Of a DNA stretch of 18,230 bases, positions 1 to 11,196 are shown one piece after another. The notes beneath the pieces are model-generated. The model saw nothing but the letters and a program-made list of their open reading frames with translations. It searched no databases and was not told the DNA's origin. Origin of the DNA: an uncultured Prosthecobacter sp. GTDB lineage: Bacteria; Verrucomicrobiota; Verrucomicrobiia; Verrucomicrobiales; Verrucomicrobiaceae. Numbering within the stretch: position 1 is the first letter of the stretch; every line of letters starts with the position of its first letter. Location of the stretch: the NCBI GenBank assembly GCA_947523045.1, contig CANNUR010000034.1:1-18230 (forward strand). Reading direction: 5' to 3'. The position numbers were made by a program, and so were the translations under genes.

Positions 1-158
1 GGATGGAGTACCTGGCCGAATGGCACCTGGTGTACCGCGACGAGGAGCAGTTCCTCAAGCTGGCACCGGAGCGCGCTCCGAAGGGCGCCGCCACCGTCAA
101 GGCGGATCCGACCGGCGTGAACATCTTCCTTGAAGTGCGCAAACCCGCCAAGAGCTGA
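1..158 (+). CDS. C-terminal fragment of a PhcB-like SAM-dependent methyltransferase (partial)
   Basis: An open frame enters from the left edge (first full codon at 3) and stops with TGA at 156-158, giving only the last 51 residues. The fragment contains EYLAEWHLVYRDEEQ and ends in a beta-strand-like NIFLEVRKP, the kind of C-terminal end seen in class I SAM methyltransferases. No catalytic motif lies inside the window, so the fragment alone does not prove a function. The call rests mainly on context: the next two genes match the PhcS/PhcR and PhcQ types, and in Ralstonia phcB, which makes a 3-hydroxy fatty acid methyl ester signal, precedes them. The 16-nt gap to the next gene's preferred start suggests one operon. 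It could instead be an unrelated methyltransferase. Confidence 0.6.
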   Translation, partial: MEYLAEWHLVYRDEEQFLKLAPERAPKGAATVKADPTGVNIFLEVRKPAKS

Positions 159-174
159 GCCCCGTCCCTCCTCC

Positions 175-2901
175 GTGCCCGACGTCATCCTCAGGAGCTT
201 CCAGGACTACGAGCGCGACATCCGCGTCCGGAACTTCCGCCTCTGCGGCATCCTGGCGACGGTGTTCATGCTGGCGGGTGCGTCGCTCGATTGGATGGTG
301 TACGGCCGCGAAGGCGTGCTGGCCTTCCTGCACCTGCGCGTCATCAGCGCGGTCTTTCTTGTGGTCATCTGGTTCCTGCTGATGACCGAACTGGGCCGGC
401 GCCTGCACCGGCTGCTCGGCATCGCCATGGCCCTGCCGCTGATCTTTTCCATCTCCTGGATGATCTACGCGCGCGAGGGCGCCCAGTCGCCCTATTACGC
501 CGGCCTCAACCTGGTCATGCTCGGCGCCGCCGTGCTCATGCGCTGGACACTGGTCGACAGCATCATCGTCGTCCTGCTGACGCTGGCCTCGTATCTGGTC
601 GCCTGCTTCGCCCACGGCCCCATCGTCAGCCGCAGCATCCTGTACAACAACCTGTACTTCCTCACCGTCACCGGTGTTTTCACCACGGCCGGAACCTGGT
701 TCTACAATCGCATCCGCTTCAGCGAGTTCATCCTGCGCCATCGCCTCGACGAAAACCGCGCCGCGCTCGAGCAGGCCAACGCCCGCCTCGGCGAGTCCAA
801 CAGCAAGCTGGAGGACATCAACCTGCAGCTGGAGGACTCGAACCAGAAGCTGCGTGAACTCGATGAGCTGAAGAGCCGCTTCTTTGCCAACATCAGCCAC
901 GAACTGCGCACGCCGCTGACCCTGCTCATTGCCCCCCTCGAAACCCTCATCAGCCGCGGCACCAGCATGACCCGCGCCGAGGTCGACGAACTGCTCGACA
1001 CGATGCACGGCAATTCCATGCGCCTGCTCAAGCTGATCAACGACCTGCTCGACCTCGTGCGCCTGGAGTCCGGCAACATCCAGATCAAGAAGGCCGCCGT
1101 CTGCATCGAGGACTTCGTCAGCGGCCAGATCAACGCCACCCGCAACGTCGCCGCCGACAAGCACGTGGCCCTGCAATCCTGGTGCGCGGAGGATCTGGGC
1201 CGGGTCATGCTCGATGCCGACAAGCTGGAGCGCATCTGCCTCAACCTCATCTTCAACGCCCTGAAATTCACGCCGGCCGGCGGCCGGGTCGAATTCAACG
1301 CCGAACGCGAGGGCGAATGGCTGCGGCTGGAAGTCAAGGACACCGGCGTCGGCATGTCCAAGGAGCAGCTCGGCCGCATTTTCACCCGCTTCTGGCAGGC
1401 CGACACCTCCTCGCGGCGCAAGTACCAGGGCATGGGCATCGGCCTGGCCCTGGTCAAGGAACTGGCCGAGGCGCACGGCGGCAGCGTCGAGGCGCAGAGC
1501 GTCGAGGGCAAGGGCACGACCATGATCGTGCGCCTGCCGTTCGAAACCGCGCCGCTCGACGCTCCCGAGCCGGAGCCGAGCTTTGAGGCTGCCGCCATCG
1601 AGCAGTTGCCGGAGGAGCAGGGTGAGTGGATCAGCGAGCTGTACCGCCGCGCCGAGCTGTTCCCGGCCATCACCTCCCTGCAGGCGACCATCCGGCCGAT
1701 CGAGACCGGCGTCCATCTCAGCCGCCGCAAGCCCAAGCTGCTCATCGCCGACGACGAGCCCGACATGCTGCGCTTCCTGCGCAACCAGCTCGGCACCTAC
1801 TTCGACATCCTGGAGGCGGTCGACGGACTGCAGGTGGTCGAAAAGGCGGCTCAGTTCCTGCCCGACCTCATCCTGACCGACATGATGATGCCGGAAAAGG
1901 ACGGCCTGCAGGTCTGCCGCGAGCTGCGCGGCCGCACCTCGACCCGCTCGATCCCCATCGTGCTGCTCACCGCTCGCGCCGATGAAAAGACCAAGATCGA
2001 CTGCCTGGAGGCCGGCGCCAGCGACTTCCTGGCCAAGCCGTTTTCGCTCACCGAACTCTGCGTCCGCCTCAAAAACCTGGTCGACAACCATCTCTACCAG
2101 AAGCAGCTCGCCGAGCAAAAACAGCAGTTGGAGGCGGCCTTCGAGCAGATCAAGGAAACGGAGGCGCTGGTCGTGCGCAACGAGAAGCTGGCCTCGCTCG
2201 GCAAGCTCAGCGCCGGCCTGATCCACGAGATCAACAACCCGCTCAACTACGCCAAGCAGGGCCTGTACAGCCTGCGCCGCCTCGAGCAGATCCTGCCCGC
2301 GGATGAGAAACCCGACTTTGTCGAGACCCTCGGCGACATCGAGCACGGGGTCGACCGCGTCGCCCGCATCATCGCCGATCTGCGCGGCTTCTCGCGCACC
2401 ACCCACGAGCTGAGCGCCGTCTTCCAGCTCAAGCCGACGGTCGAGGCGACCATGCGCTTCTTCGGCCATGCGTTCAAGGAGGGGGTCGGCCTGGAGATGG
2501 AGATCCCGGAGGGCATCGAGCTGCGCGGCGACAGCAACCAGATCGTCCAGGTGCTCATCAACCTGACCCAGAACGCCATGGACGCGATGAAGACCAAGAT
2601 CTACCCCGAGGGCGACGGGCCGAAAATCCACATCAGCGCCGAGGAACTGCCGGACCGCACGGTCCTGCGCTTCCGCGACAATGGCCCGGGCATCAACGAC
2701 GACCTGCGCCACCGCATCTTCGATCCCTTCTTCACCACCAAGGACGTTGGCGAAGGCATGGGCCTGGGCCTGTCCATCTGCCACCGCATCATCGCCGACC
2801 ACGGCGGCCACATTGACATCCGTTCTCGCCCGGGGGAATACTGCGAGTTTGTATTGGAGTTTCCCCACGTCGAAGCGATTCTTCCCGCCAACGATCCCTG
2901 A
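175..2901 (+). CDS. Membrane hybrid histidine kinase, kinase-receiver-kinase (PhcS-PhcR-like fusion)
   Basis: This 908-residue sensor starts at GTG 175; a TTG at 130 would overlap the upstream gene and is less likely. Residues about 20-175 hold several hydrophobic membrane segments, followed by a coiled coil (about 190-235). The first kinase has H-box HELRTP (His242), an N-box near 357-365 and G-boxes DTGVGM (about 389) and GMGIGLALV (about 419). A receiver follows at about 520-640 with IADDEPD, phospho-acceptor Asp569 in LTDMMMP, Thr599 and Lys621 in KPFS. A second kinase has LIHEINNPL (His684), N-box NLTQNAMDAM (about 796), DNGPGI (about 835) and GEGMGLGLSI (about 859). All key residues are present in both kinases. 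In Ralstonia PhcS (membrane kinase) and PhcR (receiver plus kinase) are separate; here the same modules lie in one chain. The ligand is unknown, and a methyl ester signal is inferred from context only. Confidence 0.88.
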   Translation: MPDVILRSFQDYERDIRVRNFRLCGILATVFMLAGASLDWMVYGREGVLAFLHLRVISAVFLVVIWFLLMTELGRRLHRLLGIAMALPLIFSISWMIYAREGAQSPYYAGLNLVMLGAAVLMRWTLVDSIIVVLLTLASYLVACFAHGPIVSRSILYNNLYFLTVTGVFTTAGTWFYNRIRFSEFILRHRLDENRAALEQANARLGESNSKLEDINLQLEDSNQKLRELDELKSRFFANISHELRTPLTLLIAPLETLISRGTSMTRAEVDELLDTMHGNSMRLLKLINDLLDLVRLESGNIQIKKAAVCIEDFVSGQINATRNVAADKHVALQSWCAEDLGRVMLDADKLERICLNLIFNALKFTPAGGRVEFNAEREGEWLRLEVKDTGVGMSKEQLGRIFTRFWQADTSSRRKYQGMGIGLALVKELAEAHGGSVEAQSVEGKGTTMIVRLPFETAPLDAPEPEPSFEAAAIEQLPEEQGEWISELYRRAELFPAITSLQATIRPIETGVHLSRRKPKLLIADDEPDMLRFLRNQLGTYFDILEAVDGLQVVEKAAQFLPDLILTDMMMPEKDGLQVCRELRGRTSTRSIPIVLLTARADEKTKIDCLEAGASDFLAKPFSLTELCVRLKNLVDNHLYQKQLAEQKQQLEAAFEQIKETEALVVRNEKLASLGKLSAGLIHEINNPLNYAKQGLYSLRRLEQILPADEKPDFVETLGDIEHGVDRVARIIADLRGFSRTTHELSAVFQLKPTVEATMRFFGHAFKEGVGLEMEIPEGIELRGDSNQIVQVLINLTQNAMDAMKTKIYPEGDGPKIHISAEELPDRTVLRFRDNGPGINDDLRHRIFDPFFTTKDVGEGMGLGLSICHRIIADHGGHIDIRSRPGEYCEFVLEFPHVEAILPANDP

Positions 2902-2918
2902 ACCGCCACCCATCCACC

Positions 2919-4169
2919 ATGCAAACCGCACACGACTACAAACGCTACGCCGTCCTCTATGTCGACGACGAGGAGATGGCCCTGAAGTACTTTCAAAAAA
3001 CCTTCGGCGCCGAATTCCGTGTGCTGACCGCCATCAATGCCGCCGAGGGCCTCAAGCTGATTGAGGAAATGGGCGAGGAGATCGGCGTGCTGCTCACCGA
3101 CCAGCGCATGCCCGGCCAGAAGGGCGTCCAGTTGCTCGAGCGCGCACGCCAGTTGCGGCCGAAGATGGTGCGCATGATGATCACCGCCTACGCCGACTTC
3201 GGCGTCTCGGTCGATGCCATCAACCTCGGCAACATCTTCCGCTACATCTCCAAGCCGCTGCAGGTCGAGGACATGCGCAATACCCTGCGCCGCGCCATGG
3301 ACTTCTACCTGCTGCAGAAGGAGCGCGACGAGCTGCTGCGCGAAAAGCTGTCGGTGCTGCAAAGCATGGTCATCACCGACCGCGTCATCAGCCTCGGCGT
3401 GCTCGCCTCCGGCATCTGCCAGAGCCTGCGCAACCCGCTCGACGCGGTGAACACCTTCCTCAACCTCGTGCCGGCCCGCCTGCGCGAGGAGGAAATTCAG
3501 CTCGACCGCCTGCGTGACCCCGGCTTTTGGCGCGATTTCCACGGCCAGGTGCTGGAGCAGACGCGGCGCATCTCCGAGGCCATCGGCGTGCTCGACGCCA
3601 ACGGCGGCAAGGAACTGGAGGATGTCGAACCGGCCGCCCTGGTCGCCGGCTGCATCGAGGCCGCCCGCGCCGCCGCCGCCGCCAGGGGCGTCAACCTGGA
3701 AAACACGATCCAGGGGCCGCTGCCGGTCCTGCGCGCCAACCCGGCCCGCTTCGCCCGCCTCTTCGAGGTCCTGCTGGCCAACGAGATCGAACTGCTCGAT
3801 CAGGGCAAGTCGGTCACCATCTCGGCCTCGGTCAATCGCATGGGCGAGACGCCGGTCAGCATTGCCTTCGAAATCCGCGACGACGGCCCGGGCCTGCCCC
3901 AGGAGGCGCTGCGGCCGATCTTCGACCCGTTCTGCATCCGCCCGGAAGGCACGGAGAAGTTCGGCCTCGACCTGCTCGGCGTCTACTTCCTGGTCCACCA
4001 TCACGGTGGCCACATCGAGGCCGACAGCGCTCCCGGCGAAGGCACCACCTACCGGATGGAATTCCCGCTGCTTGCCGAGGCCGATGCCCAGGCGTCGAGC
4101 AGCCGTGACTTCGTCACCAAGGTGCTCATGAACGACGCCCTCTGGGAACGCCTGCTCGCCGGCGACTGA
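2919..4169 (+). CDS. Response regulator with degenerate histidine-kinase module (PhcQ-like)
   Basis: This 416-residue cytoplasmic protein starts 17 nt after the hybrid kinase and is probably co-transcribed. Residues 8-125 form a receiver: YVDDEE (acidic pocket 16-18), phospho-acceptor Asp61 in LLTDQRMPG, Thr89 in MITAYAD and Lys112 in SKPL. A helical linker (about 126-150) leads to a DHp-like region in which the expected G-(x)-xHExxNPL reads GICQSLRNPL. The phosphorylatable His is therefore replaced by Gln168. The ATPase-like part (about 265-385) keeps DDGPGLP and an Asn near 288, but its second glycine box is altered to FGLDLLGVYFL. It probably receives phosphate from the upstream kinase and does not autophosphorylate. 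The position and layout match PhcQ of the phc operon. An alternative name is a generic hybrid regulator. Confidence 0.85.
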   Translation: MQTAHDYKRYAVLYVDDEEMALKYFQKTFGAEFRVLTAINAAEGLKLIEEMGEEIGVLLTDQRMPGQKGVQLLERARQLRPKMVRMMITAYADFGVSVDAINLGNIFRYISKPLQVEDMRNTLRRAMDFYLLQKERDELLREKLSVLQSMVITDRVISLGVLASGICQSLRNPLDAVNTFLNLVPARLREEEIQLDRLRDPGFWRDFHGQVLEQTRRISEAIGVLDANGGKELEDVEPAALVAGCIEAARAAAAARGVNLENTIQGPLPVLRANPARFARLFEVLLANEIELLDQGKSVTISASVNRMGETPVSIAFEIRDDGPGLPQEALRPIFDPFCIRPEGTEKFGLDLLGVYFLVHHHGGHIEADSAPGEGTTYRMEFPLLAEADAQASSSRDFVTKVLMNDALWERLLAGD

Positions 4170-9092: not shown

Positions 9093-10598
9093 CTACCAGG
9101 AGTAATGCACGGTGTAGCTCAGCGTCTGCGCCTCCCCGGGCTTCAGGGCCACGCGGAATTCGATGGTCTGAGCGTCGGTCTTGGCATAGGGCCGGCTCGG
9201 CTCGCGGATCTCCCAGTTGTGCCAGCGGTACAGGTGCTCGACGACGCGGATCTCGACCGCCTCGGTCTCCTTGCGGTTGCGCACCTTGATTTCGAAGGTT
9301 TCGTCCATCCAGCGGTTGCTGCCATCGGTGCGGAAGTTCAGGCGCTTGCGCTCACCCGTCAGGTCAAAGGCATTGCCGGTGAACAGCCGCAGGGTCTCGT
9401 CGCGCGCGGTGTGATCGATGACGTCCTCGCCGACAAAGTGCAGGCGGCCGTCGTCGTCCTGGCGATAAAAGCGCACCCGCCCCTTCGGCAGCGGCAGGCC
9501 GAGCCGGTTGTCCTTGGTGTTGGCGATCTCGCGCAGGATCCACACCTTGGGATTGCTCTGCGTGCCGTAGTTCTCATCGTGGCGGATGTTCTCGGGGTTG
9601 TAACCGCGGTAGCGGTTCGGGTCGATGAAGGCGCCGTCATAGACATAGAGCCGCTCGGCCTTGACGCCGGCCGCACGCACGAACTCGACCTGCTTGGTCT
9701 CGCGGTCGCGCAGGGTCGTCGCCAGGGGCAAAGTGTAGAGATGGAAGTCGTCGAAGGCTTTTTCGGTGACCTGAGGCATGGCTTTGTCGTTGCGGAACGC
9801 CATCTCCGCTCCGGCAAAAGGGGCGCTTGGCACGCCCGGCTGCAGCTTGGCGACATCGCCAGCCACGAGCTGCAGGGTCGCATCGCGGAAGGTCTTGCCG
9901 CTCTGGTTGTCGAGCGTCACCCAGCCGGTCAGATCCATCACCTCGCCCTTCTCCGGAGCGACGGCGTTATAGGTCGCCTCCCAGCTCATGCCGCCGGTGA
10001 CGTAGCACAGTTCGGCCTCGAGCTTGCCGGCAGCGCCAGCGTGCAGTTTCCACTCGAGCGAGGGCTTGAGAATGGCGTCATCGGCCAGGGCCGGAAACCG
10101 TGGCTCGCCCGGCAGGCTGAACTGCAACTGGCCGTCGATCTCGATGACCGGCTGGCCGGCGCCGCCGTGGCTGGCATGCGCCATCTGCGACTGGTAATAG
10201 GCCTGGCCATAGCGCTGCATGGCGGCGCCGGCATGCGGCACATAGCCGCTGCGGATGATCTTGCCGCGCACCACGCGGTCGGGCTTGTTCGGCTCGCGCA
10301 CAAAGAAGTCGATCTCCTTGCCCTCGTGCAGCGACAGCAGCAGGGCCTGCGACACCGGATCGGCGCGGTAGTTCTGTTCGAGCACCGCCAGCGCCACCTT
10401 GCCCGCCGGGTCGCGCAGCAGGACGGAGTCGGGCTCGAGGTGGGCGGTGGTGTCGGCGTAGCGCACCTCGTTGGTGCCTTCCTTGAGGTCGAGCGACAGC
10501 CGTTCGCGCACGACGCCGAAATTCTGATTGTACAGCGTCAGCGAGGTCTGGGCCTGCAGGCCGACGGTGGCGCCCAGGAGGAAGAGCAGGGGTTTCAT
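9093..10598 (-). CDS. Exported DUF4139-domain protein
   Basis: This 501-residue protein is exported by a signal peptide, MKPLLFLLGATVGLQAQ. The ATG at 10598 is preferred because it begins the signal peptide; an ATG 12 codons upstream would bury it. The N-terminal part (TLYNQNFGVVRERLSLDL, YADTTAHLEPDSVLL) resembles the domain that precedes DUF4139. The conserved core includes VTGGMSWEATYNAVAPE and WVTLDNQSGKTFRDATLQLVAGD, and the protein ends in the family-typical SYTVHYSW. Mostly beta structure is expected, in the periplasm or on the cell surface. The molecular function of DUF4139 proteins is unknown. The gene lies 49 nt downstream of the exonuclease-like gene on the same strand. Confidence 0.88.
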   Translation of the reverse strand: MKPLLFLLGATVGLQAQTSLTLYNQNFGVVRERLSLDLKEGTNEVRYADTTAHLEPDSVLLRDPAGKVALAVLEQNYRADPVSQALLLSLHEGKEIDFFVREPNKPDRVVRGKIIRSGYVPHAGAAMQRYGQAYYQSQMAHASHGGAGQPVIEIDGQLQFSLPGEPRFPALADDAILKPSLEWKLHAGAAGKLEAELCYVTGGMSWEATYNAVAPEKGEVMDLTGWVTLDNQSGKTFRDATLQLVAGDVAKLQPGVPSAPFAGAEMAFRNDKAMPQVTEKAFDDFHLYTLPLATTLRDRETKQVEFVRAAGVKAERLYVYDGAFIDPNRYRGYNPENIRHDENYGTQSNPKVWILREIANTKDNRLGLPLPKGRVRFYRQDDDGRLHFVGEDVIDHTARDETLRLFTGNAFDLTGERKRLNFRTDGSNRWMDETFEIKVRNRKETEAVEIRVVEHLYRWHNWEIREPSRPYAKTDAQTIEFRVALKPGEAQTLSYTVHYSW

Positions 10599-10647
10599 GC
10601 CGGCATTTTGCCGGAAATGAGTGCCTGCTGTCAATGCCGCCGGCGGC

Positions 10648-11196
10648 TCAATCGAGCTTCCAGTCGACCTCGACCTTCTGCTCGCGGTCGTTGCGATCGT
10701 GGTACTTCACATAACCGTGCCTGGCGCCGTATTCGTGCACGCACTTGGTGACCTTGACGTCGTAGGCGCAGTACTCGGCGATCTCGACGATCTTGCCCTG
10801 CTTCCACCAGCGCAGGGCATCGAGGCCGTCGGCGGTCTTGCCGGTGCCGAGGCTGGCCGCGGCGACCGCATCAAGCTTGAGCCGGTGCCCGAGGCGTTTT
10901 TCCAAATCGACCAGCAGGTCCAGGTCGCGCACCTGATCGCGGAAATCGAAGATCGTGTGGCCCATGAGCACCTCGTAATCGAAGCTGACATGGTTGAAGC
11001 CGACGACCAAGTCGGCGCGCACGAGCTGATGGATGAGGTCGGCGGTCTCCTCCTCCTGGTAGATGCGGTACTCGCCGAGCTTGGTGCTGTAAGTCACCGC
11101 GATGGAGATGCCCATCTTGTGCTTGTTGCCCCAGCCGCCGACGTCGTTGGCGGTGCGGCGCGTCTCCAGGTCGAAGTAGACGATGTCCCTGGCCAT
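10648..11196 (-). CDS. Ribonuclease H-like DEDDy 3'-5' exonuclease domain protein
   Basis: This 182-residue protein is a stand-alone RNase H-like fold. It shows the acidic exonuclease motifs in order: Exo I YFDLET (Asp9, Glu11), Exo II VGFNHVSFDYEVL (Asp73) and Exo III EYCAYDVKV (Tyr142, Asp146), the Y-x3-D form of the DEDDy class. No helicase, polymerase or RNA-binding domain is attached. Catalysis on DNA or RNA ends is inferred from the motifs; the substrate is unknown. It starts 3 nt after the infA stop and is thus translationally close to IF-1, which hints at an RNA-related role without proving it. It is sometimes grouped with YprB-like proteins. Confidence 0.85.
   Translation of the reverse strand: MARDIVYFDLETRRTANDVGGWGNKHKMGISIAVTYSTKLGEYRIYQEEETADLIHQLVRADLVVGFNHVSFDYEVLMGHTIFDFRDQVRDLDLLVDLEKRLGHRLKLDAVAAASLGTGKTADGLDALRWWKQGKIVEIAEYCAYDVKVTKCVHEYGARHGYVKYHDRNDREQKVEVDWKLD

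What the first reader, a model, noticed from the sequence alone, without database searches (positions are those of the whole stretch)
1..4169. Phc-like cell-density signalling operon outside its usual host group
A methyltransferase tail, a membrane kinase-receiver-kinase and a receiver with a degenerate kinase stand in the order phcB, phcS/phcR, phcQ. The Phc system is known from Ralstonia, Cupriavidus and relatives, where PhcB makes a 3-hydroxy fatty acid methyl ester. The other genes here suggest a Verrucomicrobiota-like host. If correct, this would be a lipid-ester quorum-sensing system in a phylum where such signalling is little described. Order and domains are seen directly; the signal and function are inferred.
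Basis: partly seen in the sequence, partly recalled or inferred. Interest (0 to 1): 0.75.

Follow-up and report, generated by a model that had tools for sequence, protein, structure and literature searches.

The report
Phc-type lipid signalling operon in Verrucomicrobia
This stretch carries most of a gene set that soil and plant bacteria such as Cupriavidus and Ralstonia use to sense their own crowding through a fatty-acid ester, here in a different phylum (Verrucomicrobiota), where relatives often carry an outer-membrane fatty-acid channel gene beside it; the signal itself has not been shown.

Summary
Confirmed: window 3-158 is the last 51 aa of a class I methyltransferase, 175-2901 a membrane sensor–kinase–receiver–kinase, 2919-4169 a receiver with a His-less kinase-like domain. 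The order recurs: 63 of 66 related loci with enough upstream sequence carry the methyltransferase upstream; the exceptions are two eroded operons and a lone phcQ. Full-length relatives (mostly 470-540 aa) align end to end with the Cupriavidus necator PhcB-type enzyme (40-42% over ~460 aa); in trees they lie outside the betaproteobacterial clade, within the same family. The sensor domain is homologous to that of a Paraburkholderia phc-like plasmid operon; PhcQ shares receiver and linker. So this is a Phc-type operon with phcS and phcR fused, in a Verrucomicrobiaceae-like host, outside the distribution I found in print (Betaproteobacteria). New here: a FadL-family outer-membrane channel gene lies within 1.5 kb upstream of the methyltransferase in 36 of 52 relatives, though the 8 family genomes searched hold 0-2 FadL matches each; the window's nearest relatives lack it. 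Two genomes have a PKS directly upstream. Not shown: signal, export, output. No LrhA/PhcA-like LysR was recognised in 9 genomes (weak test). New variant of a known kind; automatic JGI annotation already uses the Phc names.

The parts
3..158 (+). C-terminal 51 aa and stop of a PhcB-type class I SAM methyltransferase; the gene begins left of the window
   Evidence: Translation; tail matched in 63 of 80 related loci at the end of methyltransferases mostly 470-540 aa long; aligned with Cupriavidus and Paraburkholderia PhcB-type proteins
175..2901 (+). PhcS–PhcR-type fusion: membrane sensor, HK1 (HELRTP type), receiver, HK2 (HEINNP type); start GTG175, or TTG130
   Evidence: Pfam; catalytic residues invariant in 46 of 46; modules compared
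175..774 (+). membrane sensor domain of the fusion (residues 1-200)
   Evidence: 58 of 196 columns identical to the Paraburkholderia graminis plasmid PhcS-like sensor; a profile of window and relatives hits that protein at 139 bits
898..900 (+). phospho-acceptor His242 of HK1 (numbering from GTG175)
   Evidence: invariant in 46 of 46; codon checked
1879..1881 (+). receiver Asp569 of the fusion
   Evidence: invariant in 46 of 46; codon checked
2224..2226 (+). phospho-acceptor His684 of HK2
   Evidence: invariant in 46 of 46; codon checked
2919..4169 (+). PhcQ-like regulator: receiver, long helical linker, kinase-like domain without its His, conserved C-terminal tail
   Evidence: Pfam; alignment; structure model (mean pLDDT 74); residue counts; JGI name 'probable response regulator PhcQ' for several close relatives
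3099..3101 (+). receiver Asp61 of the PhcQ-like protein
   Evidence: D in 201 of 201; codon checked
4110..4157 (+). conserved C-terminal tail of the PhcQ-like protein (FVTKVLMNDALWERLL)
   Evidence: motif F[IV]..VL.N..LWE.LL in 142 of 201

Best explanation
A Phc-type operon. The PhcB-like enzyme methylates the carboxyl group of a long-chain, probably 3-hydroxylated, fatty acid; in many relatives (not shown for the window) the ester crosses the outer membrane with the help of a FadL channel encoded next door. The membrane sensor detects it and changes the state of the fused kinase; phosphate passes HK1 to receiver to control of HK2, and HK2, the kinase present in every intact form compared, phosphorylates the PhcQ receiver. 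PhcQ has no DNA-binding domain and, in the window, no phospho-acceptor His, so it acts by binding a partner, as Ralstonia PhcQ binds PhcA; the partner here is unknown. Shown: gene content, order, homology, intact catalytic residues. Inferred: substrate, signal, route of the phosphate, output.
For: Operon recurs in 63 of 66 loci; 38 of 68 genomes of one relative's family carry a close PhcB-type homologue (E <= 1e-200), 34 with PhcQ on the same contig and 4 with the operon cut by a contig end (counted by eye). The enzyme is 40-42% identical to the Cupriavidus necator one over ~460 aa including the N-terminal part, with dozens of residues invariant in all 50 rows aligned; the long-form family is one clade apart from four 345-348-aa rhizobial-type enzymes, 100/100. 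Sensor domain homologous to the P. graminis PhcS-like one. An unfused phcB–phcS–phcR order exists in the same phylum (L088; its PhcQ-like genes lie elsewhere). Sensor–HK2 is the minimal form (13 loci, P. graminis, pairs L084 and L094). FadL near the enzyme in 36 of 52 with 0-2 FadL matches in each of 8 family genomes; PKS upstream in L089 and L104.
Against: Signal chemistry untested; class I methyltransferases have many substrates. Outside the betaproteobacterial clade. No LrhA/PhcA-like LysR recognised. PhcQ likeness to the P. graminis one covers only receiver and linker (39% over 173 columns). The P. graminis operon has a 134-aa receiver where PhcR would stand. The window's near relatives L002 and L009 have no FadL upstream, and L002's genome has no FadL match. 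The closest genome PhcQ match, L001, has lost the methyltransferase and most of the kinase, so the system is dispensable there. Only 17 of 288 genomes drawn evenly from the phylum have the enzyme.
Confidence: 0.62

Rival explanations
1. Same genes, different molecule: the enzyme esterifies another lipid carboxylic acid (for example a polyketide or a branched or unsaturated fatty acid), still as a secreted signal sensed by the same kinase.
For: Long branch leading to the betaproteobacterial clade (0.93 changes per column); a KS-AT-DH-ER-KR-ACP synthase directly upstream in L089, and its 98% identical copy in L104; a receiver fused to the enzyme in L087 by Pfam, and by likeness in L105 and L106.
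Against: The PKS is seen in only two near-identical loci; FadL is the commoner neighbour and suits plain long chains.
Confidence: 0.25
2. Not cell-cell signalling: the operon reports the cell's own fatty-acid or membrane state, the methyltransferase tuning a membrane lipid or the sensor itself, FadL feeding fatty acids in.
For: FadL is known as an uptake channel (PMC9938287, passages); loss of the operon in L001 and L048 shows it is not essential there; no transcription factor identified beside it.
Against: Constant pairing with a PhcS-type sensor; sensor–PhcQ pairs without the long enzyme in the same and in other genomes, as expected for receptors of a diffusible ligand.
Confidence: 0.1
3. 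Chance neighbours: a generic methyltransferase beside generic two-component genes.
For: Kinases and receivers are common and hit many family models.
Against: 63 of 66 loci keep the order; the sensor and the enzyme are each homologous to betaproteobacterial partners that also stand together.
Confidence: 0.01

Closest known systems
Phc quorum-sensing system of Ralstonia/Cupriavidus (phcB-phcS-phcR-phcQ with phcA)
   Same: Gene order; enzyme length (published PhcB 464-468 aa, mostly 470-540 aa here) and 40-42% identity to the Cupriavidus necator enzyme over full length; membrane sensor kinase; receiver-kinase; PhcQ receiver regulator without DNA-binding domain.
   Different: phcS and phcR are one gene; PhcQ is longer (416 against 336-337 aa) with a HATPase_c-like domain; enzyme outside the betaproteobacterial clade; no phcA found; host phylum; frequent FadL neighbour in relatives.
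Paraburkholderia graminis plasmid pPHS1_P operon (L081)
   Same: Methyltransferase 468 aa, membrane sensor kinase, receiver, PhcQ-like 344 aa in that order
   Different: Kinase is the minimal sensor–HK2 form; separate 134-aa receiver; no FadL-profile hit in the 19 kb looked at
FadL-dependent long-chain AHL uptake in Sinorhizobium fredii (PMC9938287, passages)
   Same: FadL family channel handling a long-chain acyl signal
   Different: AHL system; here only the gene neighbourhood is known, and only in relatives

Membership tests
Phc quorum-sensing system | PhcB-type methyltransferase, homologous over its full length, first in the operon | tested here: met
   Relatives: 40-42% to Cupriavidus necator over ~460 aa, upstream in 63 of 66 loci. 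For the window itself only the 51-aa tail could be tested. The Cupriavidus protein stands in for an experimentally proven PhcB.
   Beta clade 100/100 without them; two other enzymes from the same phylum search (L088, L089) are its nearest sisters, 100/100.
Phc quorum-sensing system | PhcS: membrane sensor histidine kinase with autophosphorylated His | tested here: met
   Sensor domain homologous to P. graminis PhcS-like; His242 invariant in 46 of 46. Autophosphorylation not tested.
Phc quorum-sensing system | PhcR: receiver plus histidine kinase without DNA-binding domain | tested here: met
   Present as the C-terminal half of the fusion; unfused in L088. Absent as such from 13 short-form kinases.
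Phc quorum-sensing system | PhcQ: receiver regulator without DNA-binding domain | tested here: met
   receiver and linker 39% identical to P. graminis PhcQ-like, rest not aligned.
Phc quorum-sensing system | PhcA LysR regulator as output | tested here: inconclusive
   No PhcA sequence at hand; E. coli LrhA model as stand-in gives at most 74 bits in 9 genomes against 598 for LrhA itself; no LysR-like ORF in the 80 loci or window. LysR genes are present in 8 of 8 genomes.
Phc quorum-sensing system | Signal is 3-hydroxy fatty acid methyl ester, acting with cell density | not testable with these tools
   Needs chemistry and genetics.

The most novel reading that the evidence does not exclude
Phc signalling is not a betaproteobacterial invention but an old, widely held lipid-ester language centred on Verrucomicrobiota and neighbours, in which FadL works as the outer-membrane gate for the signal, PKS-made chains replace plain fatty acids in some lineages, and orphan sensor–PhcQ pairs listen without speaking; the betaproteobacterial form would be one offshoot with a phcA output added.
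Probability: 0.3. Interest if true: 0.78.

Novelty: new variant of a known kind. Interest (0 to 1): 0.6.

Why it matters
The published survey I found places the phc cluster in Betaproteobacteria (PMC10653808, passages; it looked within Proteobacteria). Finding the enzyme in 46 of 68 genomes of the family of a Prosthecobacter-titled relative, and the operon in a named strain, Brevifollis gellanilyticus NBRC 108608 (L008), makes lipid-ester cell signalling in this phylum directly testable. The FadL neighbour suggests a concrete answer to the question how so greasy a signal passes the outer membrane. The module comparison suggests that sensor plus HK2 plus PhcQ is the minimal circuit and that the HK1–receiver part is an optional layer.

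Tried and rejected

Rejected: that PhcQ-like proteins are uniformly dead kinases. At the two candidate His columns 58 and 117 of 201 sequences have His; the window has neither. The N-box Asn is kept in the window but in only 13 of 201. Rejected: that the FadL link is universal (16 of 52 lack it); on the quick tree presence/absence needs at least 11 changes among the 49 of 52 loci labelled (L011, L017, L058 left out as near-copies), so it has come or gone often.

Rows dropped: for the careful tree 21 of the 81 rows of the quick tree were removed, 6 long or oddly composed (L037, L074, L076, L078, L087, L092) and 15 to thin the set. The 250 relatives beyond the best 80 were not seen. In one search one of 14 'short' kinases (L056) proved to be a broken long form and is not counted. 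Counts from genome tables were made by eye; gene calls rest on simple ORF finding. Smaller neighbour clusters were not all identified.

Full report
What is there. Window 3-158 ends a methyltransferase gene; 175-2901 encodes a membrane sensor followed by kinase, receiver, kinase; 2919-4169 encodes a receiver with a kinase-like domain. Downstream, on the other strand, lie an FKBP isomerase, a PAS/PAS kinase, a deformylase and dihydroxy-acid dehydratase. The host is Verrucomicrobiaceae-like: the nearest source-named protein relatives of the PhcQ-like protein are from Verrucomicrobiales (78%) and Prosthecobacter (65%), and the four best genome loci are titled Prosthecobacter or Verrucomicrobiaceae.

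Is it an operon that recurs? A scan of one genome per species found 330 relatives of the PhcQ-like protein; the best 80 were fetched. In 63 of 80 the methyltransferase tail is found upstream; in 14 of the 17 others the contig starts within 2.8 kb of phcQ. That leaves 63 of 66. The three exceptions are L001, where only remnants of the kinase precede phcQ; L048, where a 206-aa methyltransferase start stands directly before phcQ; and L071, a lone phcQ. Within the family of one relative (G002, the genome of L014, titled Prosthecobacter), 46 of 68 genomes have the enzyme (E <= 1e-30); 38 have a close one (E <= 1e-200), of which 34 have phcQ on the same contig and four have the operon cut by a contig end (counted by eye). 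Across 288 genomes drawn evenly from the phylum, 17 have the enzyme; the PhcQ count (9 of 288) is probably an undercount, since at most six candidates per genome were scored.

Is the enzyme PhcB-like? Published Ralstonia PhcB is 464-468 aa, PhcR 368-374, PhcQ 336-337 (PMC8578825, passages). The relatives' complete enzymes are mostly 470-540 aa. The Cupriavidus necator enzyme (464 aa, P0354, named 'class I SAM-dependent methyltransferase' by its source) aligns with them at 40-42% over ~460 aa. JGI names many members 'extracellular factor (EF) 3-hydroxypalmitic acid methyl ester biosynthesis protein'. In a careful tree of 60 rows the long-form family is separate from four 345-348-aa rhizobial-type enzymes (100/100); the 13 betaproteobacterial rows form one clade (100/100), with L089 (100/98) and then L088 (100/100), both from genomes of the phylum searched, as nearest sisters. 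The outgroup branch is very long, so the root is unsure. A 50-row model has N-terminal strands, a helical bundle and a methyltransferase fold (mean pLDDT 88); the fold of the N-terminal part was not identified.

The kinases. Comparing modules: the fused form is sensor–HK1–receiver–HK2. L088 has it split as sensor–HK1 and receiver–HK2, the published PhcS/PhcR division, with PhcQ-like genes elsewhere in the genome. Thirteen loci, the Paraburkholderia plasmid protein and the pairs L084 and L094 have only sensor–HK2. HK2 is thus in every intact form compared, and I infer that it is PhcQ's partner kinase. The eight catalytic positions checked are invariant in 46 of 46 long forms. The sensor shares 58 of 196 columns with that of the P. 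graminis protein. In Ralstonia, His230 of PhcS is needed for PhcA activation, and PhcR and PhcQ lack DNA-binding domains (PMC11960443, passages; PMC8578825, passages); PhcQ binds and stabilises PhcA (PMC13320629, passages).

Neighbours. Clustering ORFs of the 80 loci and the window showed one widely recurring upstream family (42 loci); Pfam places the four members scanned in FadL/OMPP1 (PF03349, E 4e-37 to 9e-54). By a profile it lies within 1.5 kb upstream of the methyltransferase in 36 of 52 loci that have a full enzyme and at least 1.3 kb upstream, 21 in the same direction and 15 opposite. FadL is scarce: of nine genomes searched seven have a match; in G001, G002, G005 and G006 a copy stands next to the enzyme, and in G002 and G006 it is the only one; in G195, G207 and G129 (six matches, several partial) it is elsewhere; G004 and G198 have none. 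The window's near relatives L002 and L009 lack it. Of the four family genomes whose operon is cut by contig ends, three show FadL upstream (L107, L109, L110, not L111). FadL takes up long-chain AHLs in Sinorhizobium fredii (PMC9938287, passages). In L089 and L104 a PKS gene (2090 and 2111 aa; KS-AT-DH-ER-KR-ACP by Pfam in L089; 98% identical to each other) is directly upstream. Downstream, 17 of 70 loci with at least 2.5 kb after phcQ, plus L045 where the gene is cut, have a ~690-aa receiver–(GAF)–PAS–kinase gene on the same strand within 600 bases of phcQ; L055 has it 3.7 kb away on the other strand. The window does not have it on that strand: an FKBP gene follows. It adds another phospho-relay protein, not a DNA-binding output.

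Output. No LysR-like ORF was found in the 80 loci or the window with E. coli LrhA as query (E <= 1e-5). LysR genes are present in 8 of 8 genomes, but none resembles LrhA closely (best 74 bits in 9 genomes). That PhcA is nearest to LrhA/HexA is recalled, not from a call, so this test is weak.

Known or new. A survey within Proteobacteria states that the phc cluster has a restricted distribution in Betaproteobacteria (PMC10653808, passages). I found no paper on it in Verrucomicrobiota. Automatic annotation had the names already. I therefore call it a new variant of a known kind: same operon logic, fused phcSR, longer PhcQ, enzyme outside the betaproteobacterial clade, FadL company in relatives, unknown output. 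It works like Phc as far as sequence can tell; full membership waits on the signal and the output.

Noticed in passing
L084 6269-9024; L094-L103; second matches: 45 of 68 family genomes (by eye) hold a second, different PhcQ-like gene; a PhcS-type sensor kinase stands beside it in 11 of the 12 such loci looked at (not found in L085), also in five genomes without any PhcB-type match: possible solo receptors.
   Followed up: partly
L095 3006-3965, L096 7265-8224: In two of those loci the second pair is preceded by a 319-aa methyltransferase matching only the C-terminal part of the PhcB-type profile (115 and 105 bits).
   Followed up: partly
L087 2089-4146, L105 5670-7682, L106 9492-11549: PhcB-type enzyme with an N-terminal extension (670-685 aa in all), a receiver domain by Pfam in L087, upstream of a fused PhcSR and a PhcQ-like gene.
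   Followed up: partly
L089 267-7990, L104 2378-10164: Highly reducing PKS gene directly upstream of the PhcB-type enzyme in two near-identical loci; both have two PhcQ-like genes and a further receiver protein downstream.
   Followed up: partly
L021, L024, L026, L034, L038 and others: A receiver–(GAF)–PAS–kinase gene of about 690 aa follows phcQ in 17 of 70 loci, plus one cut copy.
   Followed up: partly
L001 7640-9248, L048 3736-5609 (L112 appears to be the same contig): Eroded operons: phcQ kept, most of the kinase and enzyme gone.
   Followed up: partly
L082, L083, L091, L093: 345-348-aa relatives of the enzyme stand divergently next to a GGDEF/EAL gene in 4 of the 5 plasmid stretches looked at (not in Deinococcus L092).
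   Followed up: no
window 9105-10751: 548-aa ORF with no Pfam match at 1e-3; not studied, may not be a gene.
   Followed up: no
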